Source: Marchantia polymorpha subsp. ruderalis
Taxonomy: Eukaryota > Streptophyta > Marchantiopsida > Marchantiales > Marchantiaceae
Direction of reading: 5' to 3'
Length of the DNA stretch: 64,000 nt
Assembly: GCA_037833965.1 (NCBI GenBank)
Contig: AP031353.1
Span: 622,501-686,500, forward strand
Part shown: piece by piece, positions 9,049 to 49,937 of the stretch
Position numbering within the stretch: position 1 is the first letter of the stretch
How the letters are laid out: each line of letters opens with the position of its first letter
Notes under the pieces: model-generated
What the model was told of the DNA's origin: nothing
The model's database searches: none
The model's input: only the letters and a program-made list of their open reading frames with translations
Translations under genes and position numbers: made by a program

Positions 9049-9050
9049 AT

Positions 9051-9339: not shown

Positions 9340-9341
9340 GC

Positions 9342-9870: not shown

Positions 9871-9876
9871 AGAACT

Positions 9877-11660: not shown

Positions 11661-11689
11661 TACTTTTAGCTAGTGCATGGATTTTGACT

Positions 11690-28914: not shown

Positions 28915-28916
28915 GC

Positions 28917-29193: not shown

Positions 29194-29516
29194 CTATGAA
29201 GTACATCGAGGACAAACCCATCGTCCAGCCGGAATAACATCGATAGGCGGAGTTATGCACGACATCCCATAGAGCACCTATCACACACCAACATACGGGC
29301 CGCCTGACCAGCTGACCCACACAGCATGCACCTTAAGCCATCACGTACTATCGCTAAGCTTGAATCCATAGTGCCATCTACGTTTGGGAGGTGGCATGGC
29401 GCACAATTGCGCACATGATCCTTCCAAACAACGCCGTCGTGACCCTCCAACATGAGAACTCCAGAAGGTAACACCTCCCGCACTCGCAAGATTGTGCGTC
29501 CCGTCGTCACATCCAA
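29194..29516 (-). pseudogene. PHD finger at the 3' end of element A pol
   Basis: The minus strand gives NCAPCHLPN, then C-M-L-C, then LVCDRCSMG in one frame. A small deletion around the expected Trp-His step changes the frame, after which the sequence reads CITPPIDVIPAGRWVCPRC, Thr-Ser and a stop at 29194-29196. Together these give the Cys4-His-Cys3 order of a PHD finger, with only the Trp-His step damaged. PHD fingers read the histone H3 tail; placed after integrase one could steer integration, as the chromodomain does in chromoviruses (my inference). Copy D has the same domain. Confidence 0.8.
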
Positions 29517-29531
29517 TGTCGTCGGTGTAGT

Positions 29532-31309: not shown

Positions 31310-31327
31310 GTCTCTGTGGTAACACAC

Positions 31328-32706
31328 TTTTTGTTTTTTTTGCAGAATTTAAACAATTTAGAAAAGAAGTACCGAAGCAGTGTCTGTAGTTAGAAAATGG
31401 TACGTTAAATAGAGTGGATTGAGGAGATCGTCACGAGGTCACGAAGAATCGCGAAGTTGGACCTACCAGCGTCAAATGCCTTCGGCGCCTTCGGCAAGAT
31501 CTCCTTTACTGAGGTGTCTCTACCCACGCGCTTCCAGCGTTTAGGGAAGATACGCTTCCGGCACAGACACCTCTGAAGGAGATGTCGCTGAAGACGTCAG
31601 AAGCCGGCAAGGACCTCTGAAGGCTTCCGACCATGAGTGCGACTTCGGCGATGCGTCGCTAGCGCGGGAGGGAAACCTTCATAACGATCAAGATTCACGG
31701 TAGTTCTAGTTGGTTGAGGTTGCATTGAAAAGAGCTTGGAACGCTCGTTCCAACGAGCCCAAGAGCGCCGGAGATGGATCAGGGACAAAGAAGTTATGAG
31801 CGTTGGAAAACTCGCATCCGGACATGCGCGGTTCGCGCTAGGGTTCACCGTCGGAAAGGACTTCTGTACGCCTTCGGCGGAACCACGCGCTCATGAGAGA
31901 AGATCAACTCAGAGGCGGAAGCGCCTTTGACGGCTGCGCAACGAAGAGAAGCGCAAGCCGGATGTACGCCTCCGACGTGGCGCGGATAGGCAGATGCGCT
32001 GGCATGATTCGCGCCGGCGGGAAATGCGCCGTCGGCGATAGGCGGGGCAGAACGGAAAAACAAGTGGTACGAATACGCGCCGGCGTAATTCGCGCCGACC
32101 TGATGTGCGCCTCCAGCGAGGCGCCGACAGGGAAGGAATACGCCAGCGGCGATACGCCTCCGGCGATGGTCAGGTTAGGAAAAGACAACCTAGTCGACGC
32201 ATACGCCCAACTGCGGCGAACTCGAGTCCGGAAGACGATGGCGGCTGGAGAATTCAACGTTCACGCATGCGAATGCGCGCAGTGCGGAGTCGTGAATTCG
32301 AGCATGCGAGGGAGAACCGTTAGGCCGTATAGCCGGCTGCATAATCAAGTTTGCTTGTAGCCAGTGAGAACGTTGGACGATCTTGAATTCGGAGAAGAAA
32401 AGACTGCTCTCCAGTCTCATTCTCTCATTCTTGATTGTGAGTTTGTGAGTGAGTCTCACAATCAAGAAGCGATGAGATTTTCCAGCTTCAGAGATTACGC
32501 GCAAGGGCGGAGAGACCTGCAGTGAGAAGAGAGAGTGCGCGAGGATCTTGACAGACCTTGCAGAGAGTTTGCGAGCAGCGAGCTTAAGCGCGCAAGAGAA
32601 GAGAGAGCGATTTCAGTCAGTGTTTGAGCGGCCGATGCGCAGCGGCGATTGGGAGAGAGCGAGCGGAAGGAAGAACGTCTGTGTGTGTGCAGGAAACGCA
32701 AGGAAG
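31328..32706 (+). other. 5' part of element B upstream of its ORF
   Basis: 1.4 kb. The part from about 31900 to 32230 is rich in GCGCC, CGGCG and CTCCGGCG words in loose, irregular repetition, which gives spurious long ORFs on both strands. I see no conserved coding frame before the ATG at 32707. Confidence 0.5.
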
Positions 32707-35222
32707 ATGTCGAAGGTCCCCCAGCTGCGAGTGTCCCCACTCAGAGTGCCGCATATCGGTCTGCGCGCATTCCAAGATGTGTTAACAAGGCTGAAGCTTG
32801 ACTTCCTCCTGTGGGGATGGAACAGGACATGTCCGGAGATGGTGCGCGAGTATCTGCAGGAGAAACACAAGCCCTCGCGCGGATTCCGCCCACATCCCGA
32901 GAGGTGGGACATTAGTGACTGGGCGCAGGTGTTAGGAAGGTGTGCAGGCAAGGAAGGGTTTCTCCTCTTCGAGGCCGAGAGCGTGAAGGTGTCCAAGGAG
33001 TAAGAAATCTCCTACAATGATCTTTTCAAAGTTGCCAGGCATCCCAAGAACGGTTTCCGGACACAGGATTACAAAGATCGATTGCGGAGAAATGTCGCGA
33101 CTGCATTGCTTCAGATATTGCAGCCGACCAAGACCGCCTACATGCATGGTTGGCAAGTGGGATTTGTGGAGCTAGTGTTGTCAGGAGCTCCGGTTCATTG
33201 GGCACGACTCATGTGGAAGGTGACGCGCCAACATGCGCAAGAAGAGAAAGGAGGGACCCTCAATCATCTTTCGCCTTACCTGATTGTGTTTTATCGAGCT
33301 ATGGGATGTTTGACAACTTCGGAGCGGACACGGTTTCCACTGCTCACCCGGAGTTATCCAGGTAGATACTTGCGGGAGGCCGAAGTGGACACAGATCCGG
33401 ACGAAGCACCTGCCAGTCCAGCTCCAGCTCCGGCTCCGGCCCCAGCAAGAGCAGCAGAAGAGCGTCGAAGTGAGCGCGCTCCGCGAAAGCGGAAATGGGA
33501 TGAGAGATTTGAGGACAGGCAGCCGGAGCTGCCTCTGCGCCGACTCGGAGTCGGCCAACCAACGAGCCTCACAGCCGGCCGAAACAGAGGGCACGCAAAG
33601 TGGTGTTGCCAACTAGTACTGAGGAGACCGGGCGTACTTTGGTCTGGCGGAGTATCCTGCCCACGCAGGAAGAGATAATCGCGCAGATCCTGGGGAGGTC
33701 GGCGGACACCTCTGCGGGGAAGGCACCGATACCTCCAACAGAAGATAGGCGAACTGACAGTCGGGCGACTGAAGGACGGCCAACTGAGCAGCGCGTTGAA
33801 CCGGATAGCAGGCCGGAAGCAGAAGGGAGTTTGGCTGACGAGCCAACAACCCTCAGAGGATCGCCTTCGGCAGAAGGCGCTTCTGGGACAACGCCGCCAG
33901 CAAGCAGGCCAAGTAAAGTGAAGACGCGCAGAGTGGATCCGACTGCCAGTCGGACAACTGCGAGTCGGTCAACTTAGAGTCGGCCAGATTCGCCGACTGC
34001 GAGACGGACAGGGCCGGCGACCATTGTGCGGGCGCCTTCGGCGGACACACCTCCGGCGAAGACACCTTCCGCGCAGATCGCGCCGGAAGAGCAGGCCGTA
34101 GAAGCGGGCGGTGCAAAGGTGACAAAAGTCACTGCGGCACCGACCCCTTCGAGAACCGAAGATCGAGCCGGAACAGGGGCTCAAGCCGTGGGATCCCCCA
34201 CTGCCTTGGATATTTTAGCAGGGAGTGGAGCGGCAGTCGCGGCGGAAGCTGCCGCGCGCCACAGTTCCAGGGAGTCGCCAAGAGATTCTATGGCGACCGA
34301 AATCCTCAAAACAGAGGATGAGACGAGTTCGGAAGAGCAGGAAGCGGACTCCGTGCAGAAGACGCCAACAGGGGTATTGTGCGAGCAGATAGTGCCACTC
34401 CTACGATATTTGGATCGCAAGACATCAAAGTACTCGGGTTCCAGAAAACCGCAGTCTTATGTGGAGATTGTCAAGCGCAGGACGAGGAGCAAGGTGGCCA
34501 CTTGGGCCTCTAGGTGCCAAACATTGCAGGATAGGTATACTGCCCTCCGACAGCACCTGGCGATCACGCAGAGGTTACACCAAACCCTGCAACAACAGTG
34601 GGAGGATGCGGCGACGAAAGCCCAGGCGGATGCCGAGCTAATGCGGGCAAAGATCGAGTCGGAATTGCAGGAAGAGCGGAGACAAAACCGCATCTTAACA
34701 GAGGAGCTTGCGCGCCAGGCGCGCGCATTAGAAGAAAGTCAAAGCACACGCAAGGAGGATGAGGAGTTGTTGCGCAACTTGCAATCCGAGTGCGCGGATT
34801 TGAGGGCGCAGCGCGCAGATGCGGAAATGCAGCTAGCAGAGGTGGAAGGCAGCTGCCGGACGCGAGAAGAGTTGGTGACGCGGGTGACTCGCTGTCTAAA
34901 AGGATACGCCCATTGGGAGGTGGCAGCTCAAGAGAAGATCACACTCAGGGAGTTTGAGCTTCGGGCGGCGGCATTGACGGAGGGTGACAATCGGAGTCGG
35001 CGGCGAGTAGCAAGGAAATTAGAAGCCTTCTTGTCAAGTGCGCGCGACACTATGGCGCACTTAGAGTCGGAAGTGACTGCAGCCCTTCGGCGACTGGGGT
35101 TGCGCAGCCGGTCGGAAGATTGGCAGGGTAGAGATAGGGTGCGAGGCAGTCCGGCGCGCAGGAGGCGCAGCACCGGATCTGCAGAGTGCAGTAGTGTAGT
35201 TTGGTTTCGTGCAGGAGTTTAG
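32707..35222 (+). pseudogene. Broken gag-like/coiled-coil protein gene of element B
   Basis: About 838 codons when read through. From the ATG at 32707 (MSKVPQLRVSP) a globular N-terminal domain (MVREYLQEKHKP, PHPERWDISDWAQVLGRCAG) runs to TAA at 33001. The same frame continues (NGFRTQDYKDRLRR, MHGWQVGFVELVLSGAPVHW, HLSPYLIVFYRAMG, PGRYL, VDTDPDE). A frameshift near 33540-33595 moves to a Pro/Thr/Ala-rich linker. A TAG at 33975 interrupts it. The remaining 398 codons end in a long Glu/Gln/Arg-rich coiled coil. I recall a multicopy hypothetical protein family of this type from Marchantia, unverified, and know no function. The layout (globular N-terminus, linker, coiled coil) fits a structural or gag-like protein. 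Two stops and one shift make this copy dead. Confidence 0.7.
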
Positions 35223-35971
35223 ACTAGCAAGTAGTGCAGTGTAGTGTTAGTTAGGACCTTAGAGGGTATAAAGTAGATCAAGGCGTTTTGCCTTGGGACT
35301 CTTCCAGTTTCGGAAGTGCAGATCAGGAACTCACTTTCTTGGCGTGTTTGTGCATTTGGTCCTGGCACCACGTAGAGAAGCTACAGCATAGTGAAGTTAC
35401 CGTATGTTGTAGTTGAAGGCCTTCGGCTGAATGTTCAGAGCTAGTACACCGGTTAGAGACTTGAGTAGTGCGGATCTGCACCTGCGGGTGATTTCTGATG
35501 CTCAAAGCCGGTTGCGAGTTAGAGACTTGAACAGTTCCCCCTTACTCCTTCGAGTGACATATCCTGATTGTACTCCTACGGGAAGTTTCCCCTGAATGCC
35601 AAAGTGAAGTTTTGTTACTTCGTGTAAACCTTGGTTTGCAATTCAGGTTGTGTGTGTGTGTTACTGGATTGTGTCTCAGTTAAGTTCTCAGTCAGGCCTG
35701 TACTCTCTACGCTTGGTGTGAGTCGAGGGTGACATCCACTGCGTATGAGGGACTTCGTTCCGAAGTGGGAAGTCCAGTCCGGGTTCCCTACGCTAGTTCC
35801 TGGCGGAAGGGCTGTAAAAGCCGGAGTGGGAGTCACTACCTGCAGAGCTTCTGAGTGAACTTTTGAGATACTTTCCCCCTGAAATCCTAAGCGGAGGTCC
35901 TGACCGACCTCTGAGTTGTGCTTTTCCAGTTTCAGGTGTGTGTGTGTGTTGAGTGACCTACGCTGCACTGT
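35223..35971 (+). other. 3' non-coding part of element B
   Basis: Non-coding by frame. GT-rich runs occur at 35648-35660 and 35936-35949. Its short ORFs are not credible. Confidence 0.5.
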
Positions 35972-36044
35972 GCATCCTCCGAGTCGAGCATCCTCCGAGT
36001 GACCTCCGAGTCGAGCATCCTCCGAGTGGCCTCCGAGTCGAGCA
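35972..36044 (+). repeat. 27-bp tandem repeat in element B
   Basis: Two complete units (35985-36011 and 36012-36038, one base different) with partial units on both sides. Each unit itself contains two CTCCGAGT words. Confidence 0.85.
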
Positions 36045-36199
36045 CTGCAGTATTTCTGGGAGTGACAGTCGCCTGAGAATTCAAACTCTACAAAAATCTG
36101 TTAAACGTGGCACTTTTTACTCTGTGTGTTGCCTCTGTCCCTGGGGGTTCGATCTTTTTACCACCATACTGCAGTTTTAGCCTTTGGTGGGTTATTACA

Positions 36200-36325
36200 G
36201 TCTCGTAGGAATCGTGTCAATCGTCGCCTCTCTCCTCCTGTGATCTGGAAACCAATCAATGGCTTCCATTCCTCCTCCATAGACACACTAGAGGGAGGCA
36301 ACACTGTCAATGGTTGCTACGCTAC
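36200..36325 (-). pseudogene. Element A fragment between insertions B and C
   Basis: 126 bp of element A. In sense it follows the methyltransferase region (42392 and above) after removal of element C, and leads into the RT N-terminus at 31309 after removal of element B. It encodes the block E-R-R-R-L-T-R-F-L-R. One frame change separates it from the upstream ORF. Confidence 0.75.
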
Positions 36326-36745
36326 TGTAACACTAGGGTTTAGAGAGAATTTCACTCGAAGATAGAAACGTAAACTCTGAAGATGAGAGATACCAACAAT
36401 GGTTCTCCTCTCCCTTATATAGCTCTCACCAACAAGTACAAGGTGATAAGATCTAATCCCCACCATCCATACCACTCCTAGTGGATGGATGACGTGGCGG
36501 ATAACCCTAACAAGCACACGGATCGCTGACGTGGCGCACCCAACTAACACACTAACTAACACACTCAATCCTTACCTACAAGCACACGGATTGCTGACGT
36601 GGCACTGTCAACTAACACATCCACTCTGTACCTACCAAGTGCGCGGATCGCTGACGTGGCAGCTATGACTAGTGCACACTAAAGTATCTACATCAATATT
36701 CAGAGTAACCTCTACTTTAGTTCTAACTAACTAAAGATGGTTACA
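36326..36745 (-). repeat. 3' LTR of element C
   Basis: 420 bp, TGTAACACTAGGG to GATGGTTACA, identical by eye to 41968-42387. Confidence 0.97.
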
Positions 36746-36758
36746 AACCTCCCTCCTT
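36746..36758 (-). promoter_or_regulatory. Polypurine tract of element C
   Basis: Sense AAGGAGGGAGGTT, lying between the pol stop codon (36759-36761) and the 3' LTR. It primes plus-strand synthesis. Confidence 0.9.
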
Positions 36759-39700
36759 TTAAGATGCAACGTCCTCGTTGCACATACGTTCAAACTCCTG
36801 AACTATCAAAGGTGCATTTGCTAAATTTTTAGCTGGTTCCCAAGTTGATTCATACGATGGATAGCCTTTCCATTGAATCAAATACTCTACTTTGGGATAT
36901 TTATGACCTCGAATACGTTTCTTGAGTATCTTTTCTACCTCAAACTCCTCATGATCTGCTATCAAGGTTGGAAGAGGAGGTGGTGCTGGTTGATTGGTGA
37001 ATTGTTTTGGTCGTGGTACATGTTTTCGCAATCGTGACACATGAAATACTGGATGTATTTTCATATGTGACGGAAGTTCCAACTTGTATGACACTTCACC
37101 AACACGCTTCAAAACCAAAAATGGACCAATGTACCTAGGGTTTAACTTTGGTGTTCCTACAAGAGACAAATTCGTTGTAGATAACCAAACATGATCTCCA
37201 ACCTCAAAAATCACTTCTCTACGATGAGCATCGGCATGCTGCTTTTGCCGATTTTGAGCTATCACCAACTTCTCCTTGGCCTGATGTAGTCCTCGGTGAA
37301 TATGCTCCATGAATTCGTTGACTGCTGCAACTTTGGTCGAAAACTCCTCTCCTTTCGGAAGTCTCATCAAACTTGAAGGAGTTATCGGATGAGCTCCATA
37401 CATAAGAAAAAATGGAGACACTTTTGTGGATGCATTAACAGAATTGTTATATGCAAATTCCACAAGTGGCAAAAGGTTGTCCCACTCTTCTTGCTCTTCT
37501 AATGTGAATGCTCGTAGCATATCCTCTATGGTTCTATTTGCCCTCTCAGTTTGTCCATCAGTTTGAGGGTGATAGGCCGTTGACATTGCTAGTTTTGTTT
37601 TGAAAAAACTAAACAAAGTTTTCCAAAATAAACTAGTGAAGTGAGTACCTCTATCCGTGATTAACACTTTGCTTAAGCCATGATTCACAAAAACTGCGTC
37701 TAGATACAATTGAGCTAGTTGTGGAGCTGTTACTGTTTTTGTGGTTGGCCTGATGTGAATCATCTTGCTCAATTTGTCCACAAAAACCACCACTGAATCA
37801 TGTCCTAACGAAGTCCTTGGTAACTCACATACAAGATCCATGGTGACATGTTCCCACCGCTGTTCGGGAATAGGAAGAGGTTGTAATAAACCCGCTGGTT
37901 TTTGATTACTTGCCTTGTTTTGTTGACAAGCAACACAACTTCGAACGTAAGACTCCACATCCTCACGTATTTTGGGCCAAAAGTACACTCGTTGTATACT
38001 CTCCACGGTTTTCTCCACTCCCACATGACCTGCAATGGCTGTATCATGACTTTCTGCCAAAATCATTGTGCGCAAATCGTGATCTTGTGGAATCCATATA
38101 CGCTGATTGTAAAACGCCAAACCTCGAGATTTCTCTGCCTTTCCAGTTTGTAGTGCTCGAGTGATCTCTTCATCCTCCTTTGTGGCTTGTGACATCTTGC
38201 TCCACCAATCCGCCTGAATTTTCACTTCTGCAACATGATTCAAACAAGGCATGCGTGTGAGAGCATCTGCAAGTTGCTTCTTTCCCTCCACGTACACAAT
38301 CTTCATGTTGAAGCGTTGACGCCACTCTGCCCATCGAATTTGTCGTTTGGACAGATCCTTCTGAGTTTCCAAATAAACCAAGGGTTTATGATCAGTCTCC
38401 ACCACAAACTCCTTATCACCCAGATAATGCTTCCAATGTTTGGTTGCCAACACGATAGCTAACTCCTCCCGTTCTGTCGTGTGATAATTTTGTTCCGCCG
38501 CCACCAACTTTCGAGAATAGAAAGCAACTGGATGCCATCCATCCTCCCATTCTTGTTGAAGTATGCCACCTACTGTTGTACCTGATGCGTCAGTGGCCAA
38601 CTTGATAGAACGGTTAGGATCATACCACTTGAGAATAGGTGCGTGTAACAAAGCATCTTTCAATGCTTGAAAAGCTAACTCTTGAGCTGTTCCCCATCTC
38701 CACTTCTGACCTTTCCCTAACATGGAAGTCAAGGCCTGAGCTAGTCGAGCAAAACCTTTCACAAATCTACGATAGAATCCAGTGAGCCCTAGAAAACTCT
38801 TCAATTGAGTTTGATCCTCAGGTGCTATCCATTTCTGAATGGCCTCTATCTTCTCACTCATCACTTGGATTCCTGTAGCTGTAACTCTATGACCCAAGTA
38901 ATCTACTTCTGACTTGCCAAATTCACATTTTGAAGCTTTGGCATACAATTGATTGTCTCTTAAAACTTGAAGTACCTCTCGTAAATGACTTCTATGATCA
39001 CTCAAAGTTTTGCTATACACCAATATATCATCTAGAAAAACAATGACAGATTTATCTAGATAAGGGCGAAAGATATCGTTCATCAATCCCATGAATGTAG
39101 CTGGTGCATTAGTGAGACCAAAAGGCATCACCAGATACTCAAAGTGTCCATACCTAGTACGAAAAGCTGTCTTGTGAACATCTTCATCTGCAATTCGAAT
39201 TTGATTGTAGCCGCTTCTCAAATCTAGCTTGGTGAAGTACTTCGCTCCTTGAAGTTGATCAAACAAATCATCCATACGAGGTAATGGATATTTGTTTTTC
39301 ACCGTTTGCTGATTCAACCCGCGATAATCGATACATAGTCTCATGGATCCATCCTTCTTCTTCACAAAGAGTACTGGAGCTCCATAAGGTGAAACACTTG
39401 GCTGAATGAATCCCTTGCTCAACATCTCCTCCACTTGAGCTTTGCATTCTTCCAATTCGTTTGGAGCCAAACGATATGGAGCTTTGCAAGTTGGTGTACT
39501 TCCAGGTATCACCTCAATCTTGTGATCAACTCGCCTCTTTGGTGGTAATCCTGCAGGTAGATCATCTGGAAAAACATCTTTATACTCCATAAAAATGTCG
39601 TTCAAGGACTCCGGGATGTAAGGTTTGTCCGTGGACCCAATATCTCTTATAAGTCCAAGGAAACATACATCATCTCTAGAAATGGATGCTGTACCCATCA

Positions 39701-40204
39701 CAAAGAGGGGTAAATTCCTATTCTGAGATCTAATTCTATCTCCATAGATCTTCCATCCGCTACTTGTAATCACTTTTCTTCTCCAATCTACCTTCGGATT
39801 ATATTGTTCCATCCATGGCATTCCAAGGATGACATCATACCGAGCTAAACGAATTACTCTCCATTCAATGCTCTCCTTGTATCTACCTATGGATAATTCT
39901 ACACTCCGTGGTAGTGTTTCTATCACTTCAGTTTGCCCGTTTGGCAATTCAACTTCTTCACTCACGTCCTTCATCAACATCAAACCTAACTTCATAGCAA
40001 CACTCCTTGATAGAAAATTCTCAGTTGCTCCAGGATCAATTAAAACTCTCACCTTGTGTCCTTCCATGAAACCATCAGTGACAATGAGTTGAGCTTGCTT
40101 CTTACTCCTTCCATGAGCTCCCAACCATTGCTTTCTTCCAACCTCGCCTTTTCTTCGCTTTGTAGAACCAGTAAGGCCGCGAGGCAAGATTACTGGTGAT
40201 CTTC
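36759..40204 (-). CDS. pol: Pol polyprotein of element C (PR-RT-RH-INT-chromodomain)
   Basis: About 1,140 residues in the -1 frame relative to gag. The frame has no ATG at its start and is open from the slippery site at 40211-40205, so it is expected as Gag-Pol. Visible in order: retropepsin ([11 protein letters not shown]), RT ([33 protein letters not shown]), RNase H ([24 protein letters not shown]), integrase zinc domain ([25 protein letters not shown]), catalytic core ([31 protein letters not shown]), the GPF/Y-type module ([22 protein letters not shown]) and a C-terminal chromodomain ([28 protein letters not shown]). The chromodomain marks it as a chromovirus-type element that targets histone-marked chromatin. 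No stop or shift is seen. Confidence 0.96.
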
Positions 40205-40211
40205 GTTTCCC
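40142..40211 (-). promoter_or_regulatory. -1 ribosomal frameshift signal between gag and pol (element C)
   Basis: The slippery heptamer GGGAAAC lies at 40211-40205, phased G-GGA-AAC in the gag frame and 12 nt before the gag stop. After a 7-nt spacer comes a perfect 8-bp stem, ACCAGTAA (40197-40190) with TTACTGGT (40174-40167), with a 15-nt loop. Loop bases CCTCGC (40184-40179) can pair with GCGAGG (40147-40142) to form a pseudoknot. The gag stop is inside the first stem arm. Confidence 0.85.
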
Positions 40212-41353
40212 GAAACTGCTTCCTCCACCTCTTCATACTCTATCCCCTCCATATTGTTGAACGGTCGTCGCTGCATGGGCCGTCCTCCTTGTTGTGTCGG
40301 CCGAACTCGACAAAACTTGGCTATGTGACCCATTCGTCCACATGCATAGCATTGGCGATTGTCACGAACTCCAGCTCCTCCTCGAACCATTCCATTATTT
40401 GCATAACCTTCTTGCAAATTTGGAACTCCTGGTCGCCTAATCTCACCTCCAAATCTTGGTGGTGGTCCTCTTGTTGGTGCAAAACCTTCTCTACGTCGAA
40501 GGTTTCCCAACTTCATCGGTGTTGGACCAGATGGATCTCTAAAATTGCTCACTGGCTCACCGTGTGTGACACCAAAAGCACCTGAAATTCGTTGAGCAAT
40601 TGCGATTGCTTCATTCACAGTAGATGGATTGCTTACCATCACCTCCTTTCGAATTCGATCTTTCAAGCCTCGTTTGAACACGTCCAAGGCTTCAGCTCCA
40701 CTCATATCCATGATAGATACTTGAAGATCACGAAATTCTTCAATGTACTCATGAATACCTCCTTTCTGCTTCAGATCCCACAACTTCATTCTTGCAGTTT
40801 GAAGAGAATCCACCGCTTGAAAATTTTGCAGAAGTCCTTCCTGCATTCCACTCCACGAAATGGTAGCACCTCGTTCTGAAAGCATTCTCTCCCATGTTGT
40901 GTACCATGTGAGAGCCTTATCCGTAAGATAAGATCTCATGAACATTCCTGCAATATAATCAGAAACATGAAAATGGGATAAATGAATATTCATCCTCATA
41001 ATCCATCCCTCTAACACTCCCATTGCTCTACTCCCTTTGTAAGCTTCCACCTTACAGGATTTTCCCATTCGAAGCAAAAGATTTGCTTGATCTTCAATCT
41101 CTTGAAGACGTCTCCTATTTGCCTCTGCTGCATCAATAGGAGTTGGTTCTGGCTGAACTTGGGAAGCTTGAACTTGAGGTTCAACTTCCATCTCTCCAAC
41201 TCTCTCTCTATCTACTTTCTCACTCTCTAATGCAAAGATTTTATCTTCCATGGCTTGCTGCTTGGTATGCCCATCTACTATCGCTTTTCTCAACTCCTTC
41301 ATCTCCGCCATGATTGCATTGAGAACCTCACCCATATCAATTGATGTTCCCAT
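40190..41353 (-). CDS. gag: Gag of element C
   Basis: 387 residues from the ATG at 41353. A coiled-coil-like N-terminus is followed by the retrotransposon capsid fold ([50 protein letters not shown]) and a C-terminal zinc knuckle [14 protein letters not shown] (C-x2-C-x4-H-x4-C) that binds RNA. It forms the particle. It starts 17 nt after the stop of the second small ORF. The frame is intact. Confidence 0.95.
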
Positions 41354-41370
41354 GCTTTTTCACACTCCCT

Positions 41371-41577
41371 CTAATACAAAGTGAGTATAATCATTATGTG
41401 ACCTCTCAACAAAGGAGTCACAAAAGGTGCAGGTGACTCTATCACAGCTCTATAGTACTCCTCTCCATAATTCCTCACAAGAAAATCTCTCCATATCCTC
41501 TTCTGTCTATATACTGTTCTAATCTCTACATAAGTGCTGAATCGAACCAGGACAGGTGGTTCGCGGTTCAAATCCAT
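41371..41577 (-). CDS. Small leader ORF 2 of element C, paralogue of ORF 1
   Basis: 68 residues from the ATG at 41577 (MDLNREPP); the frame is open further up to an ATG at 41625. Its core (IWRDFLVRNYGEEYY, then AVIESPAP) aligns without gaps to ORF 1. I know no family for it. It lies between the PBS and gag in sense, so it could be translated from the genomic RNA before gag or by leaky scanning. Function unknown. Confidence 0.55.
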   Translation of the reverse strand: MDLNREPPVLVRFSTYVEIRTVYRQKRIWRDFLVRNYGEEYYRAVIESPAPFVTPLLRGHIMIILTLY

Positions 41578-41584
41578 GAAACAA

Positions 41585-41803
41585 TTAGTATAGAATGTAT
41601 ATAGTACAATCCCAAGTCTCTCCATAAGTAACTATTGGAAGAATCAGTGGCACTCTTGACTCCATCACTCTAGTCATAAAATCTGCACCCCAACAAGCCA
41701 CAAGGTACATCCGAAAATGATGTTTCTCCATGCAACGAAGGTGAATATCGAATAGGTTAGGAATTGGCCAGTGCGGTACTGGATTCCTGTCAATCCCGTC
41801 CAT
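41585..41803 (-). CDS. Small leader ORF 1 of element C
   Basis: 72 residues from the ATG at 41803 (MDGIDRNP), ending 7 nt before the aligned ATG of ORF 2. The core HFRMYLVACWGADFM then RVMESRVP matches ORF 2 at about 10 of 33 aligned positions, including the Gly, the Glu-Ser and both Pro. The aligned starts and tandem layout suggest an old duplication kept under coding constraint. Confidence 0.55.
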   Translation of the reverse strand: MDGIDRNPVPHWPIPNLFDIHLRCMEKHHFRMYLVACWGADFMTRVMESRVPLILPIVTYGETWDCTIYILY

Positions 41804-41954
41804 ATCTGCAAAAACACAATGTCCCCCTTCCACCTCTCTCTACATGCAGATGAATGACCTCTGCCAACCTCTATACACTCTCAAGACTACACTCCATCAT
41901 CACTCACTTGCTATTCCATGAGGGGTAATCCACACTCAAGGAAAGAGCAAGGTC

Positions 41955-41966
41955 GCTCTGATACCA
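41955..41966 (-). promoter_or_regulatory. Primer-binding site of element C
   Basis: Sense TGGTATCAGAGC, one base after the 5' LTR. This is the standard plant site complementary to the 3' end of initiator Met tRNA. Confidence 0.96.
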
Positions 41967-41967
41967 T

Positions 41968-42387
41968 TGTAACACTAGGGTTTAGAGAGAATTTCACTCG
42001 AAGATAGAAACGTAAACTCTGAAGATGAGAGATACCAACAATGGTTCTCCTCTCCCTTATATAGCTCTCACCAACAAGTACAAGGTGATAAGATCTAATC
42101 CCCACCATCCATACCACTCCTAGTGGATGGATGACGTGGCGGATAACCCTAACAAGCACACGGATCGCTGACGTGGCGCACCCAACTAACACACTAACTA
42201 ACACACTCAATCCTTACCTACAAGCACACGGATTGCTGACGTGGCACTGTCAACTAACACATCCACTCTGTACCTACCAAGTGCGCGGATCGCTGACGTG
42301 GCAGCTATGACTAGTGCACACTAAAGTATCTACATCAATATTCAGAGTAACCTCTACTTTAGTTCTAACTAACTAAAGATGGTTACA
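41968..42387 (-). repeat. 5' LTR of element C
   Basis: 420 bp, identical by eye to 36326-36745. In sense it drives transcription of the element. Confidence 0.97.
42055..42302 (-). promoter_or_regulatory. LTR promoter of element C: TATA box and four ACGT boxes
   Basis: TATA box, sense CTATATAAGGG, at 42066-42055. Upstream in sense lie four exact copies of GCCACGTCA (plus-strand TGACGTGGC at 42132, 42169, 42237 and 42294), three of them inside longer repeats (CACGGAT-GCTGACGTGGC). These are G/C-hybrid ACGT cores of the type bound by plant bZIP factors. The same set is in the 3' LTR at 36490, 36527, 36595 and 36652. Confidence 0.7.
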
Positions 42388-42392
42388 GCTAC

Positions 42393-43783
42393 ATCCTGCA
42401 AAGAAGGGTTCTTCATACCCTCCTTCGTAGCCACCTCCATATGAGAATCCTCTCCAACTGCATAGGCTGCAACTTTGGCAGGTCCTTTCATCACGTCCCA
42501 TAAACTCCAAGAATGACGAATATCTCGTCTGTCGCCCCCAGCCATTGTCTCTACCGTCTCGGTATGCAATGAGCTAACAAGTGGTGTACTAACCACCAAA
42601 TCAACGTGCAAACGGCGTTACTCCGCCAAACCCAAGCTCACAATCCACGTCAAGCAGTTCAAGTCCATAGCTTGACCCAAAACCTGACGACGCGAAGCCT
42701 TTGAAACTGTAGCAGCTGCGGTGACACCAGTCATAAATCCCATCGCACGCTCTCTCTCATCAGCGTTGGGCTCCATCAACTGATGTACTGTACTGTCCCA
42801 CAGTAGTCCAGGTCCACCATCACGATATGCATGTGATGCCGGATAACTGACAAATGTAGGTAAAGCCATCCGAGGCTGACCTACGCGGTTCACCTTTGCC
42901 ATAGGTGACCTGTCAGCAACTCTCACTACCTGAGAGTGTCGGAAAACATCCAAGATACTGTCAACAATGAGTGTAGGATCACGCTGCACAGAATCATAGG
43001 CATGACGCAATATCTCACATGGCAAAAGATTGGTCCACCATAAACGTGCACGATGAGCACGTGATACAACCCTCGCAGCATCCAACAGTACTGCTGATCC
43101 AATCCATGCTTGGACCTGATGGACACTCGCCATCAATTGGGCCCGAGTGTCACCCAACAATGGTACGTTCTCTGATTTGTATGCTGGAGAACGTGTCTGC
43201 TGCATTTGGAGATGACATAACACTCGCATCATCTCCCAACACATCCAAGATCTGGGAGCATGCAACCTTGTCCCATGTCCAACGCGTTAGTGTCCCTGAC
43301 ATGGCCAGCCCGCAATCACCGTATCAATATTGCCAACGCGGACAAGGTCTGGCGCCCCCAACAACAAAATGTCTGAAGGCAACGCCTCGGGAATCCTCGG
43401 ACAGTTGATCGCAGCAATAACGAAGGAAAACGCCGCATCAACTGTGCAACATGTCGTGAGGGGACTCGACGTGCAGTCTAGTCCTTCTCCACATACAAGT
43501 ATCTCCGTACGATAATACCTGACTGCAACAGCGCAGCCAAACCTGTGCTGATCCCACCAAAAAGATCAAGCAAACAAACGCCCTCTGAAGAATACTCCCA
43601 TTCAATAGATGTAGTAACCAATGGAGACCATGCGCTAGAACCACCAACTAGCCGATCAGCTGAAGCCCTCTCTGGCTCTGCTGGTAAAGAGGCTTCACTC
43701 CAAGCCTTTTTCACCAACCTATCAGCCTCCAACTGTAGTGCCTGGCACGAACTCCACAGTGGAACATCTAAGGGTGAAGTCAC
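42393..43783 (-). pseudogene. C5-cytosine DNA methyltransferase domain (DNMT3-like) of element A
   Basis: Lies in sense between retropepsin and RT. Motif I is CLLDLFGGISTGLAALL, followed by VRRYLYVEKD and then a TAG at 43480-43478. The same frame continues with TARRV and RHVAQLMRRFPSLLL. One frameshift later the sequence reads DTVIAGWPCQGH, with the catalytic Pro-Cys pair (codons 43304-43299). After a further shift come MMRVLCHLQ, SENVPLLGD (motif VI Glu-Asn-Val, 43172-43164), VLLDAARVVSRAHRARLWW (like the DNMT3 AHRARYFW block) and a C-terminal target-recognition/motif X part (ERAMGFMTG, SKASRRQVLGQAM) to the stop at 42618. Such enzymes methylate cytosine at C5 in DNA. All key motifs are visible, but one stop and at least two shifts inactivate this copy. 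The 42611-42393 stretch links to RT. Confidence 0.85.
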
Positions 43784-44363
43784 CGCCGCTGTGTACTCAC
43801 AACCTCCTCCACATCCTCGTAGAGTGAGGTATCGTCGGCAGACATGTTCCCCTCCAACAAGCCATTGGGCCAGGTAAGCACTCCGCTAAAACCCGCAACA
43901 GATGCCAAGACCGCTGATGAAGATCCAAGAGATCGATCTCGAGAAATAAATCTCACTAGCAGCTCGCTCAGACGTCCATCTCCGGACTGCCAACTAGGAC
44001 GATATGCGGTAGTCTCCGTCCAATAGTCCATCCGAAAGCCCATCGGGTATAACACAACTCCACCAACAAGCACATCATATGACTCTGCTGATGTAACCAC
44101 AGCACGAACTCCAAACTGCGAGCTATCATGAAGGTGATCATGCCTCAATTGCACCGCTATGCTCTCCCTGGTCATAAAGTAAGACTTATCGCTGGCGCCA
44201 CCAAGGGATGTCTGGACTCTGACCTCTGAATACCCAAACTAATGCATGCAGCCTTGCCCAACATCAAGGGCTGTGCACCAGAATTCAACAAAACTCTGGC
44301 TGGGACATACACATGTCCATTAGAACTCACTAACCGAAATAGACCACTTCGGTTGTCCACCAT
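43780..44363 (-). pseudogene. Retropepsin-like protease of element A
   Basis: The minus strand reads a flap-side start (GLFRLVSSNGHVYVPA) and the active-site loop VLLNSGAQPLML, where Asn stands in place of the catalytic Asp. A frameshift near 44175 leads to the second half, including SYDVLVGGVVLYPMGF. It would cleave the polyprotein. The Asp-to-Asn change and the shift inactivate it. It directly precedes the methyltransferase block. Confidence 0.75.
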
Positions 44364-44391
44364 ACATACACCATGAACAATACTCTCGCGA

Positions 44392-46290
44392 TCAATGGCG
44401 AGCTTGTAAGGACTCCATCCTTGCCGCTACGGCCTGCCAAGTCGTCTCCTCGAACAATGTAGACGTTGAGGATGGGTCCTCAATCGTATCCTCACGTATC
44501 TCGGCACTCGTAGCAGCGACTCTCCCACGCTCACACGACGTGGCTGCTACCCGAAATACTCGAGCCAAATCAATACCAGAGTCTATCAACTCCGTGGCTG
44601 AAAACAATGGAGATTGCAAGACTGAAGTGGCCATCCGCATCACTGCACTAGATGGCACGTCTGCGTCCACAACAGATGATGTAAGAACCTCAGTTCTCAC
44701 TCTAGTGTCACTAGGCGATGCAGGTCTCATAGATGAACTACTACCCACCTCTGACAACAAAAAGGACTGGAGAAGTCTAGAATGACGTCCACCCTCACCC
44801 CTCTGAGGGTCCAACTCCACAATTGCACCACGTGGCTCTAAAGTGCGAGCACCACCTCTCGTCACTGCAACTGATGCCTCAACCTGTGCTGCACTGGCCA
44901 AATAGGAGAAATCCTCTCCCTCGTAAGATGTGGAAGTGCTCGCCCCCAGACCATCCATAGCAGCAAGCCTCTGCTCCAACTGCTCAATCCGAGCAGCCAT
45001 AGCACTCTCTGTGGCGGAAGTAGCACTCGTTGCGGTACCTCTACCACCTCTACCGCCTCTACCACCTCGGCCTCGTGGAGCATCACCTCCACGACCTCTA
45101 CCTCCAGATCTCAACTCAGGATGAAGGTCAAAGCAACGCTCTCGAGAGTGACTCGGTCGATGACAATGATCACAGGTCACCTGTGCCGGCTGTGGCCTAG
45201 CATGTGGAGTTTGTCTCTCTTGCTCTTGGGGACAATCCTTCCTCATATGACTACTTCCGCATGTCCAACATGATGATCCCTGTGGCTGGCCCAAAAATGA
45301 AGGCAGTGGTGGCCGCGCACTAGGCTCTCTGTGACCTGAAGGATGTCGTGTATGACCTCCATGACTCCCACTACCACCACCCGTGGGGCGAGACTGTGCT
45401 GTGTTATGTGGGATACGCGAAGTAGTGGTCGTGTCTCTTGCAAATGTAGACGTCACCACCCTCTCCTCCACCATGTTAAGCTCAATCTTCTCATAAAGAG
45501 CAAACACATGGGCTAATGTGGGTGATGAGTCGCTCATGAGAGTAGCATCACGCACTCTCCTCCGCAACTCTCTGTCCAGAATCCGATACCAGTACTGGAC
45601 AGCCTGTGCCTCAGTTACACCGTGAGTAATCAAAATTAGCCGTCGCATACGAGTGTATGCCTCACGAAGACTCTCACCAGTCTTCTGCTCAAACTCCTGG
45701 AAGCTCCTCAACTTCTCCGTTTTCACCCCCTGATAATTCTTCCTCGATCTCTAGAAGAACTCAGGAATGGGGCTAAACGAAGGTACGCCACTAGCATCTC
45801 CCCTCGTGCTGCCACCGGCAATGCTAACAGTACCGCTGCTGGTACTAGTACCAGTTGCGCCAACTGCTACACTGGTACCCTCGCTGATGCTACTACTCGC
45901 ACCTCCACTGATGCCGATACTCGCACCTCCACTGGTACCCACCCCACCTTGGGTAATGGATAAGTAGTTCGGAGACCAATGGCGCCTCCATGCATCAATC
46001 TCCGCAGCATAATCTCTCCCAAACTCATGACGTCCATGGGAGGCCCCTCCAAATGCTGGAATAACCCCTTCCACGCAAAGAAGGGTGTAAACAACGTGGG
46101 GTTACGCAGAAACTGCATATCACACCACGTGTCGAACTCCTGAATTAAAATCATCGAGCTCGATGGTGCCCACTGCACGAGAGTAACGTCGAGGGTCCTT
46201 CACGGCCCCGTACATTCCGTCCATGTCCCAAATCAATGGGGTTGGAACACTAGACGATATCACCACCAAAGACTCTATGTCTGCAACACT
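44392..46290 (-). pseudogene. gag: Gag of element A
   Basis: Main open part 45726-44392 (444 codons). It has a capsid block (LRSFQEFEQKTGESLREAY, AVQYWYRIL), two zinc knuckles (CWTCGSSHMRKDC with spacing 2-3-4, and CDHCHRPSHSRERC with spacing 2-4-4), an RGG-rich stretch and a Ser-rich C-terminus. An in-frame TAG at 45753-45751 splits it from the N-terminal part (46074 down), which holds a Gly/Ser/Thr-rich run. A frameshift near 46030 leads to an upstream block with FLRNPTLFTPFFAWKGLFQHL. The gag of copy D matches the capsid part. Confidence 0.8.
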
Positions 46291-49200
46291 CTAGTCCTGC
46301 TCCGCAACAACTGGCGAAATAGGTGAAGGTAGTCGATACCTCAGCTCACTCCGCGTAAATCCCCCGCGGTCCTAAACAGGACCACTAGACTGCTCCGTGA
46401 TGACGAAACCTCAACTGGCACCACTGCCAGATCTCCACCCAATAACCCTATGTGCACCTGACGTCGTGCCGCACTAAGCTACTCTAGCCCTACTAACTAA
46501 GAGGTATGGGCAACCTAGCCTGTCATCACAGCAAGAAGACTTTCACGGTCTACTGGTCATCACTCCAGTCTCACCGTGAGAGAAACATAGATAGGCCGGC
46601 CGGTGATCAAGTCCAGCCCCCTATCGACAGCACATAGGAGTAAAACTACTCCGCAAATCTGCGTCACCCCTACACGGGCGCGCACCAAGAAGCAAGACTG
46701 GAGAGGATCCAAACACAAGCAAACAGCTAGCAACGACTCTCCAGTCTAAAGGAAACACATCACAAAACAAGACAACACACACGGGACATTGCGTCGCTTC
46801 GCGTTCCCGATTCGATCTCCATCGCCCTCCTATCACCAAAAACTTATCACGTACAAATGGTACGTGATAAGTTGCTCTCACGTTCCCATCCATAGGTTGG
46901 TCACGAATCCGTCACCAATTGAACGTTGGAGAAACATCTCCAATTCGCGCAGGGAAAGAACTTTACTATTCAACTAGTAGGCTATCTGACTATGATTTCA
47001 TAAGGAAATCACTAACAAATCACTAAGTACGCTAATTGCCTAATCATAAAAAATCACAACATTTTGTGATCAAGTTGTACAAAAATGATAAATGCAACAC
47101 CGTACCTTCAAACTAAAAGAAGTGAGACTAGATGCAAACTCCAGTCTCTTCAGTCTTTTTTTTATTTCTTTATTTTTTTTATTTTTTACTTATATTTTTA
47201 TTTTTTTATTTTTATTTCTTATTTTTTACTTTTTACTTTTTATTTTTTTATTTTATTTTATTTTAATTTTATTTTTAAACCTGAAATGTTGTGCTCGGAC
47301 AGTCACACCAACTCGACACCTTAACAATTGATATCAGTATACTGTATTTCTGAGTATACTGTATACAATCAGTATCCAATATTTCTCTGTATACAGTAAG
47401 AATGTGAAAACTATTTGAAAACTAGAAGGTGTAGGTCGAGCTAGCTGATCAGTATACTAACAGTTCTCTACACAGATGCAAGTGGCAGGGAGACCGAAGT
47501 GACCTGAACTAACTTACATAAATCAAAAGGAACATTTTTTTTATTTTTTTATTTGTTGTCCCAAAGAGAGCCTGTTTCTGAACCCAGTGTCTAAATTTTC
47601 TACAAAGAAAAGAAGGCATTTAGTTCTATAGAGGATTTTACTAGGTCTTCATTTACCTCCCTATGAAAGAGAAAACATCAGATCATTTACATTAATCTGA
47701 TCATCTACATATCCCATCATAACAGTTCTAACCTCAATATTTATCTTTACGAACATATCCTTCACTCATCTCAGAACGGAAACAATCCCAACTCTTTGCG
47801 CTGAAGGACTCAACAAGGTCCACGACGTTTCTCCTCTCACGCCAGAACTCTCAAACTCACACTCCCTATCTGATGTATTTTTGAACTCCAAACATTTTTG
47901 CTCCTTCAAATCAGTCAATGATGAGTCCATGGACGAAAAAGTAAGATGGAGATTCTGACAAAGATCTTCATCCGAAACTGAGTTCTCCGCTTCAATAGGT
48001 ACAACACGTACTCAACTAGGGGACAACAGACATCCAGCAGTATTTTTGATTCTCCATTTCCGAGAAGAGGACGTGATTAGAGCAGCAGCATCCTTCTTTC
48101 CTCCGCTACCAAAACCCTGTCTCCTTTCTTCGCTTCTTGTTGGGACACTCAGATCTATACTCCACTTTGTACCTGAAAATGTATACAATTTGCGACACTT
48201 CGTGGCAAGAGATGAGGCCCGCTAATGCATCCAAACTATGATCAGGAGGTACAACTCAATTCAGTTTTCCAAGCTGCCCTTAATGTCGAGTTCAGGTTCA
48301 GATGATTTTGCTTCCACAGGTATAGAAGCATATAGGTTGATGAGCTTCTCCTCCTCATGCGACAACTTCAGATGGCAAGCTTCACGGTCAATTAGCATAC
48401 TCACCGAATCAGGTGCAGTGATCCCTCAAATTGGACAGGCCAGCTTCGCATGACCTCCTTTCTCCAACGCATTACAGTCCTCTACTCCACTAGACCAACT
48501 ACAGCATGCGCAGCAATCTGTCGCATGTTGTGGACAGATTTCTTTGCCTTCGGCAAATCAGATCAACTTCAATCTGTTTCTATTAATTAATCTGCTGTAC
48601 TTCCCGAATTGCTGATAATACTACGTCAGGCCCCGCTGCTCTCTCCGCTGATGACTTGTCTACTTCTCTCTGAAATCTGCTGCTGACGGCCGCTGCCAAA
48701 TCTGCGCTCAGCTTTACGCTAAGCAATATTCAAGGTCAGTTGTACTCCTGTCCCCGAGCTAAATTCCTATATTCGACCCCTTCTTTCTCTTTGAGATTAG
48801 ATATCACCTTTGAGTCTACACAAGCAGGAAGTAGAATTGTCTCATATGTGTTTGAATCGTGAATCAGATTTGACAGTTCAGATGATCTGAAGGTACTACG
48901 GGTGAAATTACTACACTGATTTCTCCTACCAAGTCACATAAACCTCATTTCGCTGGAACCAAAACTATTACTCCATTTGAACTCTGTTTCAATTCACAGG
49001 CACCATATTCGGAATCAGAGTAAAAGAATACGTAGCTGTAACACCCCGACTTGCATAGTTGCAATTAACGCACAGAGATAATTCTCAGGCGATTCACGCT
49101 CAGATTCTTGTAAAGTCTTGTCGCATTTCCCTCACATTCTCAAGGTCACACTCTCGAGCCCTTCCTTCTCTCTCTCTTGCCGAAACACAATCTGCAACCC

Positions 49201-49644
49201 GCAGATTCATTGGCTTCGTTTATCCGTCGTCGACTTCTAATTTTCCCTCAAACTTTTACAAATCTTTCCAACACTAAGACGATGGAAGCTTCCAAAGGAG
49301 AAGCTTCTAAATTACTCGCGAAATCAACACAGAATAAGAATATCATTGCTTTTCCGAATCTCCATGATATGACATCTCCGACATGATGAACAATACTGCT
49401 GCAGTCTGTCGCACCTCACCTCCACGCAGACTCCACTCGTAATAGCGATGTCACCAATCCCGCCCGCACAAGCTCCGACATCAGAAATTGAGCTGATTCT
49501 TCGAGCTCTCTTCCAGTGATTCCTCTGTTCGATCAAATTCAAAATATTGAAACTCAACCACGTACAATGAAACACACAAAAACCACTCTAGCCAAAAGCT
49601 GACCACAACCCACCGACGATTTGGTGTACACTGAGTTTTTTGAG
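46291..49644 (-). other. Leader of element A
   Basis: 3.35 kb between gag and repeat L, partly collinear with 13931-17085 of copy D. It has a T-rich block at about 47156-47275 (A-rich in sense) and the short inverted repeat CTTATCACGTACAAATGG-TACGTGATAAG near 46845-46872. No conserved ORF. Next to L the sense sequence is CTCAAAAAACTCAGTG, with no initiator-Met PBS. Confidence 0.55.
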
Positions 49645-49937
49645 TGAAATAAACGTGAGATTCCCCACTGGAATTCCCGTCGGTCAATTACCCTACTGGC
49701 AACAAATCGTCACCATCACAAACATGAGTCAAGCCCAACCCACTCCACACTCGGAGAATCTAGGTCGACGCAAAGGGAAAAGTCGCTCTACGCTCCCAAC
49801 GCTTCCAGGCTCGACTCGAAGAACTAACGTTCTTCGAGCCGTCCCCGAATGTATACCCCTCGTGACCCGAACCCTATTTTCACGTCTAAATATAGTAAGT
49901 GCCCAAACTGCGTGAGCCGACTCGTAACTACATGACA
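49645..49937 (-). repeat. Repeat L, 5' copy (A1) of element A
   Basis: 293 bp, TGAAATAAACGTG to TACATGACA, about 95 percent identical to 28621-28914. X is absent on both sides here. Confidence 0.9.

What the first reader, a model, noticed from the sequence alone, without database searches (positions are those of the whole stretch)
42618..43783. A Ty3/gypsy-like retrotransposon that carries a DNMT3-like DNA methyltransferase
Between the retropepsin and RT of element A the minus strand encodes, in order, C5-methyltransferase motif I (DLFGGISTGL), motif IV (GWPCQG), motif VI (ENVP), the AHRARLWW block typical of DNMT3-type enzymes, and a C-terminal motif X-like part. The order and spacing are those of a real enzyme, broken only by recent-looking lesions. 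From memory, methyltransferase-carrying retrotransposons have been reported in dinoflagellates and charophyte algae; I do not know of a described land-plant family. An element that can methylate its own cDNA, and that also carries a chromatin reader (PHD), would be a self-marking parasite.
Basis: partly seen in the sequence, partly recalled or inferred. Interest (0 to 1): 0.88.

Follow-up and report, generated by a model that had tools for sequence, protein, structure and literature searches.

The report
Liverwort jumping gene with DNA methyltransferase
A retrotransposon present in many, often unbroken copies in a Marchantia-like liverwort genome carries its own DNMT3-type DNA-methylating enzyme, which selection appears to keep intact, so it may chemically mark its own DNA copies.

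Summary
Minus strand 42618-43627 is a broken but clear C5-cytosine methyltransferase (MTase), motifs in normal order, nearest to DNMT3A among solved structures. It is no one-off: the 111 scored own-genome matches (of 659 candidates) cover nearly the whole domain. In 20 fetched copies, chosen for long open frames, every motif is intact; in 14 of them MTase dN/dS (0.21) overlaps that of RT (0.14).

Intact copies show the design. ORF1 = Gag-protease-MTase ends at UAG-CAA-YYA (20 of 20 loci), a TMV-type readthrough context; then in frame ORF2 = RT-RNaseH-DDE integrase-PHD. Ends are split direct repeats (A1...B1-A2-B2) with 4-bp target duplications; a 12-nt putative self-primer site follows A1. Relatives occur in liverworts, Sphagnum and green algae, in two domain orders.

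Closest known is KnitGypsy-Dnmt3 of Klebsormidium; my searches found no land-plant description. An extra: 5' leaders differ between subfamilies and hold host gene fragments, in one copy clearly spliced and antisense.

The window copy is dead: MTase stops and frame changes, RT core missing, two nested insertions. Self-methylation of cDNA is likely but untested. New variant of a known kind.

The parts
49646..49937 (-). A1, 5' terminal repeat (292 bp, TGTCATG...), without the B part
   Evidence: 96% identical to 28623-28914; A1 alone at the 5' end in 5 of 5 own-genome copies with fetched 5' ends
46830..49645 (-). leader; holds segments matching loci elsewhere
   Evidence: 47850-48153 matches three spaced blocks at C8:1058154-1058874, 48152-48488 two blocks at C2:14949410-14949966; a sibling copy at C8:382083-384490 shares most of it at 93%
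43795..46224 (-). ORF1 Gag and protease part; zinc knuckles about 45130-45271, protease motif NSGAQ about 44300-44260
   Evidence: tblastn of P0121 residues 1-778, 79.8%; frames
42618..43627 (-). DNMT3-like C5-cytosine methyltransferase domain, broken by stops and a frame change
42388..42617 (-). end of ORF1 after the MTase, up to the nested insertion
   Evidence: P0121 aligned to 42387
36311..36319 (-). ORF1 stop TAG in context TAG CAA CCA; in frame with the RT linker in the empty-site reading
   Evidence: TAGCAAYYA in 20 of 20 fetched loci, contexts
36321..42387 (-). nested chromodomain Ty3/gypsy element B with one copy of its 5-bp duplication GTAGC (not part of element A)
   Evidence: LTRs 36326-36745/41968-42387 identical, duplication, Pfam
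36200..36310 (-). ORF2 N-terminal linker, first piece
   Evidence: P0129 695-718 at 36271-36200; empty-site reading
31343..36199 (+). second nested insertion C (plus-strand ORFs), splits the ORF2 linker; limits approximate
   Evidence: P0129 alignment break 36200/31342, ORFs
31215..31342 (-). ORF2 linker, second piece, ending at the loss of the RT core
30801..31214 (-). RNase H
   Evidence: PF17917 8.7e-37
29340..30770 (-). DDE integrase (H2C2 1e-16, rve weak) and C-terminal part
29197..29330 (-). PHD finger, frame-shifted in this copy
   Evidence: intact in L018 (PF00628 3.6e-10)
28917..28988 (-). B1 repeat (core)
   Evidence: 72 bp identical to B2
28911..28920 (.). palindromic junction GACA-GC-TGTC between B1 and A2
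28623..28914 (-). A2 repeat
28504..28575 (-). B2 repeat (core), 3' end of the element (...CGCACGACA)
9047..17367 (-). older decayed relative of element A; no MTase found in it
   Evidence: RT, integrase and PHD remnants

Best explanation
Element A is a dead copy of a large, partly intact family of Ty3/gypsy-type retroelements in a Marchantia-like liverwort. SHOWN by sequence: an un-rearranged DNMT3-type MTase is the last domain of ORF1 (Gag-protease-MTase), ahead of a UAG-CAA-YYA stop; ORF2, in the same frame, is RT-RNaseH-DDE integrase-PHD; ends are split direct repeats with 4-bp target duplications; MTase dN/dS in copies with open frames is about as low as that of RT (overlapping intervals). 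INFERRED, in falling order: (1) the stop is leaky, so the MTase is made in Gag amounts and packaged into particles while Pol is a minor readthrough product; (2) the RNA 5' end primes reverse transcription by pairing with the 12 nt behind A1; (3) the MTase methylates cytosines of the element's own cDNA before integration; (4) the PHD reads histone H3 tails and steers integration. The likely gain is an incoming copy that already carries the host's silent-DNA mark.
For: MTase motifs and homologues. Nearest solved structures: DNMT3A 6.1e-12 (single sequence) and 1.2e-21 (profile), against 4onj (labelled DNA methyltransferase; recalled as a plant DRM) 1.2e-8 and 1.1e-9, DRM2 1.6e-4 and 5.3e-5, HaeIII 3.5e-4 and 4.1e-7; confident model, pLDDT 90.4, pTM 0.91. 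Copies: 123 PF00145 matches, 28 in open frames of 1265 aa or more (by eye); 111 scored matches to the domain, 69 without a stop in it (by eye). 20 of 20 fetched copies keep five motifs. dN/dS in 14 copies: MTase 0.21 (0.12-0.34), RT-RH 0.14 (0.07-0.28), IN 0.23 (0.10-0.61), Gag 0.27 (0.18-0.41). TAG CAA YYA in 20 of 20 loci; ORF of 150 aa or more directly behind it in the same frame in 19 of 20, not in L029. Self-primer 12 nt exact in 4 of 5, a TATA-like box 30 nt upstream in 3 of those 4. Split repeats and 4-bp duplications in 5 of 5. RT and MTase identities correlate, r 0.685, 0 of 9999 permutations as high. Published: SymbioDIRS MTases methylate CG in yeast (PMC5890265, section 10 read).
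Against: No activity data. In the only comparable test KnitGypsy-Dnmt3 gave no methylation in yeast, called inconclusive by the authors. CpG observed/expected in ORF1 (0.71) gives no sign of extra depletion: nested element B without MTase is lower (0.59), the MTase part is 0.86. The PHD is less constrained than the enzymes: pooled dN/dS 0.47 in 15 copies, few codons, which weakens step 4. Fetched copies were chosen for long open frames, which lowers dN/dS, and they share ancestry; the genome search scores only the best candidates. Readthrough, self-priming and packaging are read from motifs. Structure comparison with the PDB could not be run.
Confidence: 0.6

Rival explanations
1. The enzyme works in trans on host chromatin: it raises methylation across the host genome or around new insertions, rather than marking its own cDNA.
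For: High copy number; discussed for Symbiodinium in PMC5890265 (discussion read).
Against: The MTase sits in the Gag-side product, which favours particles; selection on a trans benefit shared by all copies should be weak, yet dN/dS is low.
Confidence: 0.15
2. The domain acts without, or not mainly by, DNA methylation: for example as an RNA methyltransferase, nucleic-acid chaperone or decoy for host DNMT3.
For: PMC5890265 raises RNA methylation for the LINE type; activity of this family is unproven.
Against: Catalytic motifs kept in 20 of 20 fetched copies; DNMT3 is the nearest solved relative, DNMT2-type enzymes far weaker, 1.2e-4 and 1.9e-4 against 1.2e-21.
Confidence: 0.2
3. The MTase was captured twice: once between protease and RT (type I), once between RNase H and integrase (type II), not moved inside one lineage.
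For: Two positions exist; two independent captures were proposed for SymbioDIRS.
Against: 22 retro-MTases of both types split from liverwort host DNMT3, DRM and human DNMT3A with 97/89; type II is one clade in the RT and MTase trees, 100/99 and 97/94. Only three cellular sequences were in the test, and one viral-contig sequence (L001, very long branch) fell on the retro side.
Confidence: 0.15
4. Chance capture of host DNA by one copy, without meaning for the element.
For: None after the genome search.
Against:: many copies, intact motifs, low dN/dS.
Confidence: 0.01

Closest known systems
KnitGypsy-Dnmt3 of Klebsormidium nitens (de Mendoza et al. 2018, PMC5890265; first two of seven parts of the text, sections 9-11 and passages read)
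   Same: Dnmt3-type MTase in a Gypsy-type polyprotein; repeats arranged as in DIRS but Gypsy domains; purifying selection on the MTase
   Different: Host is a land plant; MTase lies in ORF1 before a leaky-type stop, there in Pol; PHD occurs 0 times in that paper's main text; duplication, self-primer site and leaders like these were not in the parts I read. K. nitens sequences were not recovered, so kinship is untested
SymbioDIRS-Dnmt3 of dinoflagellates (same paper)
   Same: Dnmt3 MTase in a split-repeat retroelement; two domain orders
   Different: Tyrosine recombinase there, DDE integrase here
Type II algal elements found here (Haematococcus P0170, Monoraphidium P0178, Cymbomonas P0199)
   Same: RT, RNase H and a retro-MTase of the same clade; DDE integrase and PHD in P0170 and P0178 (P0199 lists neither rve nor PHD)
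   Different: MTase behind RNase H, before the integrase. PMC6338049 (passage) already speaks of DAM- and DCM-encoding elements in green algae, so algal cases may be known
Chromoviruses (nested element B)
   Same: Ty3/gypsy enzymes; chromatin reader at the integrase end
   Different: Chromodomain not PHD; ordinary LTRs; no MTase
Tf1/sushi self-primed elements and SIRE1/TMV readthrough (recalled, not looked up)
   Same: RNA 5' end pairs with a site behind the repeat; UAG-CAR-YYA
   Different: No MTase, no split repeats

Membership tests
KnitGypsy-Dnmt3 | Dnmt3-type MTase inside a Gypsy polyprotein | tested here: met
   but upstream of the stop, with Gag
KnitGypsy-Dnmt3 | Repeats A-coding-B-A-B | tested here: met
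   5 of 5 copies with both ends. Of 20 loci, 14 show B1-A2-B2 at the 3' side, L019 B1-A2 only, L010 and L013 end after B1, L024, L025 and L029 did not show the repeats in the stretch
KnitGypsy-Dnmt3 | Same clade as the K. nitens sequences | not tested
   No K. nitens protein in the lists (120 of 287 shown)
Ty3/gypsy (Metaviridae) | PR-RT-RH-DDE integrase order | tested here: met
   L018 ORF2 RVT_1, RNaseH, H2C2, rve in order; DSGAQ protease motif in ORF1 (no protease Pfam hit in L018 ORF1)
Ty3/gypsy (Metaviridae) | Complete identical LTR at both ends | tested here: not met
   5' end is A1 alone, 3' end is A2-B2
DIRS | Tyrosine recombinase and no target duplication | tested here: not met
   rve domain and 4-bp duplications in 5 of 5; no recombinase in the Pfam scans
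DNMT3 | Motifs I-X in un-rearranged order | tested here: met
   the host gene L003 shows the rearranged order
DNMT3 | Nearest to DNMT3 among characterised C5-MTases | tested here: met
   the tree puts it beside, not inside, the three cellular enzymes
DNMT3 | De novo DNA methylation activity | not testable with these tools
   Needs an assay
UAG-CAR-YYA readthrough | Motif at the stop and in-frame downstream ORF | tested here: met
   Motif 20 of 20 loci, downstream ORF directly behind in frame 19 of 20; actual readthrough not testable

The most novel reading that the evidence does not exclude
A plant retroelement that arrives disguised: its Gag-linked DNMT3 pre-methylates its cDNA, its PHD picks silent chromatin, and its lineages keep swapping their 5' leaders for spliced, antisense pieces of host mRNAs taken up by template switching, so that small-RNA silencing aimed at the leader would also hit host genes. 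DNA circles joined at the palindrome GACA-GC-TGTC would be the integrating form.
Probability: 0.1. Interest if true: 0.92.

Novelty: new variant of a known kind. Interest (0 to 1): 0.74.

Why it matters
Retroelement-borne cytosine methyltransferases were described from dinoflagellates and a charophyte alga (PMC5890265); one opinion paper says land plants such as tracheophytes lack transposon-encoded DNA methylases. Here is a family in a liverwort of a genus used as a laboratory model, with many copies, unbroken ORFs, near-identical terminal repeats (0-6 mismatches in 290 bp in five copies) and signs of selection on the enzyme. That makes an open question, why a transposon would carry the kind of enzyme that silences transposons, testable in a tractable land plant. 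It also adds enzymes to the host's own set: a published count for M. polymorpha names five DNA methyltransferases (PMC5784723, passage).

Tried and rejected
Rejected: chance motif match; single-copy capture; recent capture from this host's DNMT3 or DRM; RT of element A at 38-39.6 kb (belongs to element B); ordinary LTR structure. Led nowhere: viral-contig scans (none; one contig, L001, 31% identity); Rfam and the tRNA scan in bacterial mode, no hits; CpG depletion as a trace of self-methylation (not informative); NCBIfam (only the general dcm model, below its cut-off, for P0002 and L018 ORF1). No K. nitens protein was seen in three protein searches. The species is inferred: 9 contigs, 241 Mb and best ORF1 identities of about 90.7-96.6% to M. 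polymorpha proteins in the 20 copies, so probably a Marchantia other than the reference strain.

Full report
WHAT IS THERE. The minus strand of 42618-43783 carries a C5-cytosine methyltransferase in pieces: motifs I, IV, VI, VIII and X in order, with stops and a frame change between them. Pfam sees it only faintly in this copy (0.039) but clearly in relatives (6 of 10 relatives scanned pass the curated cut-off; the other 4, P0056, P0020, P0010 and P0011, show no family at E<=0.1).

KIND OF ENZYME. Against solved structures the intact relative P0002 (source organism not given) matches DNMT3A best (6.1e-12), then DNMT3B/3C, 4onj (1.2e-8, recalled as a plant DRM), DRM2 (1.6e-4), HaeIII (3.5e-4), HhaI (about 4e-3). 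With the 56-row profile DNMT3A again leads (1.2e-21), then 3C and 3B, 4onj (1.1e-9), HaeIII (4.1e-7), DRM2 (5.3e-5), HhaI (9.2e-5). The AlphaFold model is confident (pLDDT 90.4). The host genome also has an intron-containing, un-rearranged DNMT3-like gene (L002) and a DRM-like gene with motif order VI-X before I-IV (L003) (the names are my reading of motif order). In a tree of 26 rows, 22 retro-MTases of both architectures split from these two and human DNMT3A (97/89; bootstrap not settled, short and partly partial sequences; the viral-contig sequence L001, on a very long branch, falls on the retro side).

COPIES IN THE GENOME. The window lies in a 241-Mb, 9-contig assembly. PF00145 gives 123 matches (290 candidates, 123 scored); at least two are host genes; 28 lie in open frames of 1265 aa or more (counted by eye). 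P0002 gives 111 matches (659 candidates, the 111 best scored), nearly full length at 73-79% identity; 69 have no stop inside, 42 have (by eye). Both lists favour well-kept copies; the window copy itself is not in the list.

DESIGN OF INTACT COPIES. I fetched 20 of the 28. ORF1 (1299 aa in L018) has two zinc knuckles, a DSGAQ protease motif and the MTase (Pfam names only the MTase). At its end stands TAG CAACCA, in L025 TAG CAACTA; in L024, which carries an internal duplication, the context lies further down, at 6756 of the locus (20 of 20 loci hold TAGCAAYYA). An open stretch of 150 aa or more starts directly behind it in the same frame in 19 of 20; L029 has none there and its RT part lies beyond a break. 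ORF2 is fully open (1042 aa) in 15 of 20 and, in L018, holds RT, RNase H, H2C2 and rve integrase, and a PHD. UAG-CAR-YYA is recalled as the TMV/SIRE1 readthrough context. The placing matters: the MTase would be made in Gag amounts, unlike the published KnitGypsy and SymbioDIRS cases, where it lies in Pol.

ENDS. Copies start with a 292-bp repeat A1 and finish with B1-GC-A2-B2; 5 of 5 copies with both ends fetched show this, each with a 4-bp duplication (AAGA, AAAG, AGTG, CAAT, ATGT), and are 11.3-12.1 kb long. Window flanks are TCTT and TCCT. This is the DIRS-like arrangement reported for KnitGypsy-Dnmt3 (figure legend) but seen here with a DDE integrase and a duplication. Of the 20 loci 15 hold the palindrome GACAGCTGTC at B1/A2; 14 show B1-A2-B2, L019 only B1-A2, L010 and L013 end after B1, and L024, L025 and L029 did not show the repeats in the stretch fetched. 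Twelve bases behind A1 (ACTCGAAGAACT) are the exact reverse complement of AGTTCTTCGAGT at position 112 of A in 4 of 5 copies, with a TATA-like box 30 nt upstream in 3 of these 4; L033 and the window copy have mismatches. That fits self-priming as recalled for Tf1.

SELECTION. In 14 copies intact in both ORFs the MTase has dN/dS 0.21 (0.12-0.34), overlapping RT-RNaseH 0.14 (0.07-0.28), IN 0.23 (0.10-0.61) and Gag 0.27 (0.18-0.41) (L024 left out because of its duplication). In all 20 the MTase has 0.17; the tail behind the MTase (0.45) and the PHD (0.47, 15 copies) are looser. The sample is biased to open frames and the pairs are not independent.

SPREAD AND HISTORY. Search with the Gag-MTase stretch gave 48 polyproteins and an alignment of five divergent ones gave 44, including Haematococcus lacustris, Monoraphidium neglectum and Cymbomonas tetramitiformis. 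Forty proteins hold both MTase and RT: 14 with the MTase first (type I), 24 with RT first (type II), 2 overlapping by the rule; in the type II proteins scanned (P0172, P0175) the MTase lies between RNase H and integrase. In 28 elements with enough of both domains, type II is one clade in the RT tree (100/99) and the MTase tree (97/94), and MTase elements stand apart from four elements without MTase with modest support (82/80). Identities of the two domains correlate (r 0.685; 0 of 9999 permutations; 376 of 378 pairs). The simplest reading is one old capture, inherited with the element, and one move; long branches (P0168, P0166, P0164) make details unsure.

THE LEADER. Between A1 plus 12 nt and a shared stretch before ORF1 lie about 2.7-3.5 kb that differ between subfamilies. 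Leaders are inherited: sibling copies share whole leaders or most of them (98%, 93%, 98-99%, 100%), and one module of L032 recurs at about 36 of 40 scored places. I searched six leaders against the genome. L030, L031, L032, L033 and the window hold blocks that touch in the element but are spaced apart at another locus; L034 shows no such spaced set. For L030 the sign is ambiguous, because a sibling copy at C2:30886828-30889246 has about 277 extra bases at the same point. The clear case is L032: five touching blocks match C7:8670463-8672109, and the gaps begin CT and end AC at three of four junctions exactly, one base off at the fourth beside an alignment gap, so introns were removed and the piece is antisense to the element; its reverse strand encodes part of an AAA ATPase (9.1e-10; by eye PEX1-like). 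In L033 the strand opposite to the element encodes a Sec63 domain (8.8e-33), matching six spaced blocks at C8:424060-426298 (splice sites not seen). Orientation is known for these two only. I had no paper searches left to check whether this is known.

THE WINDOW COPY is dead: MTase stops and frame changes, RT core missing (31220/31214), insertion C at about 31343-36199 and the young element B (identical LTRs, 5-bp duplication GTAGC). Intact copies exist elsewhere.

FUNCTION. Best guess: the MTase marks the element's own cDNA before integration, and the PHD, whose nearest solved relatives include CHD4, KMT2D, PHF12 and PHF21A (recalled as largely readers of unmodified H3K4), guides integration. 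Neither is shown. Published work found CG methylation by SymbioDIRS enzymes but none, inconclusively, by KnitGypsy-Dnmt3.

LITERATURE. Ten searches listed no report from bryophytes that I recognised from titles and abstract starts. Read: PMC5890265 (first two of seven parts, sections 9, 10, 11, passages); passages only of PMC12344493, PMC5784723, PMC6453930, PMC9516144, PMC6338049, PMC9033089, PMC10952607. [quoted passage not shown] Most subscription papers and all bioRxiv preprints are outside the library.

Noticed in passing
L030-L034 and window 46830-49645: Leaders differ between subfamilies of the MTase element and hold fragments of other loci; in L032 a spliced, antisense host gene piece, in L033 an antisense coding piece.
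   Followed up: partly
C2:30886828-30889246 (no locus fetched) against L030: A sibling leader has about 277 extra bases where L030 and its C2:23975488-23976395 source blocks meet: retained intron, later splicing or insertion.
   Followed up: no
window 36321-42387: Nested chromodomain Ty3/gypsy element with identical LTRs, open gag and pol, 5-bp duplication GTAGC.
   Followed up: partly
window 9047-17367: Older decayed relative of element A without a detectable MTase, with a copy of element B's LTR at 10480-10900 (85%) and a palindromic junction at 9336-9345.
   Followed up: partly
window 31343-36199: Unidentified insertion with long plus-strand ORFs inside the ORF2 linker.
   Followed up: no
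L032:4076-4465: A 130-aa sense ORF in a leader module that recurs at about 36 of 40 scored places of the genome; no Pfam match.
   Followed up: partly
L010, L013: These two copies end after B1, lacking A2-B2; either B1/B2 recombination or integration from a circle with one junction.
   Followed up: no
L002, L003: A DNMT3-like host gene (un-rearranged, with introns) and a DRM-like one in the same genome; a published list of M. polymorpha enzymes that I saw names DRM but no DNMT3.
   Followed up: partly
P0170-P0187: Elements, three with named algal hosts in the wider set, with the MTase behind RNase H, a second domain order.
   Followed up: partly
P0202: A long Gypsy-type polyprotein with a PHD listed but no MTase found, a possible relative before capture or after loss.
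   Followed up: no
window 51281-51831: Self-similar stretches in an AT-rich region.
   Followed up: no
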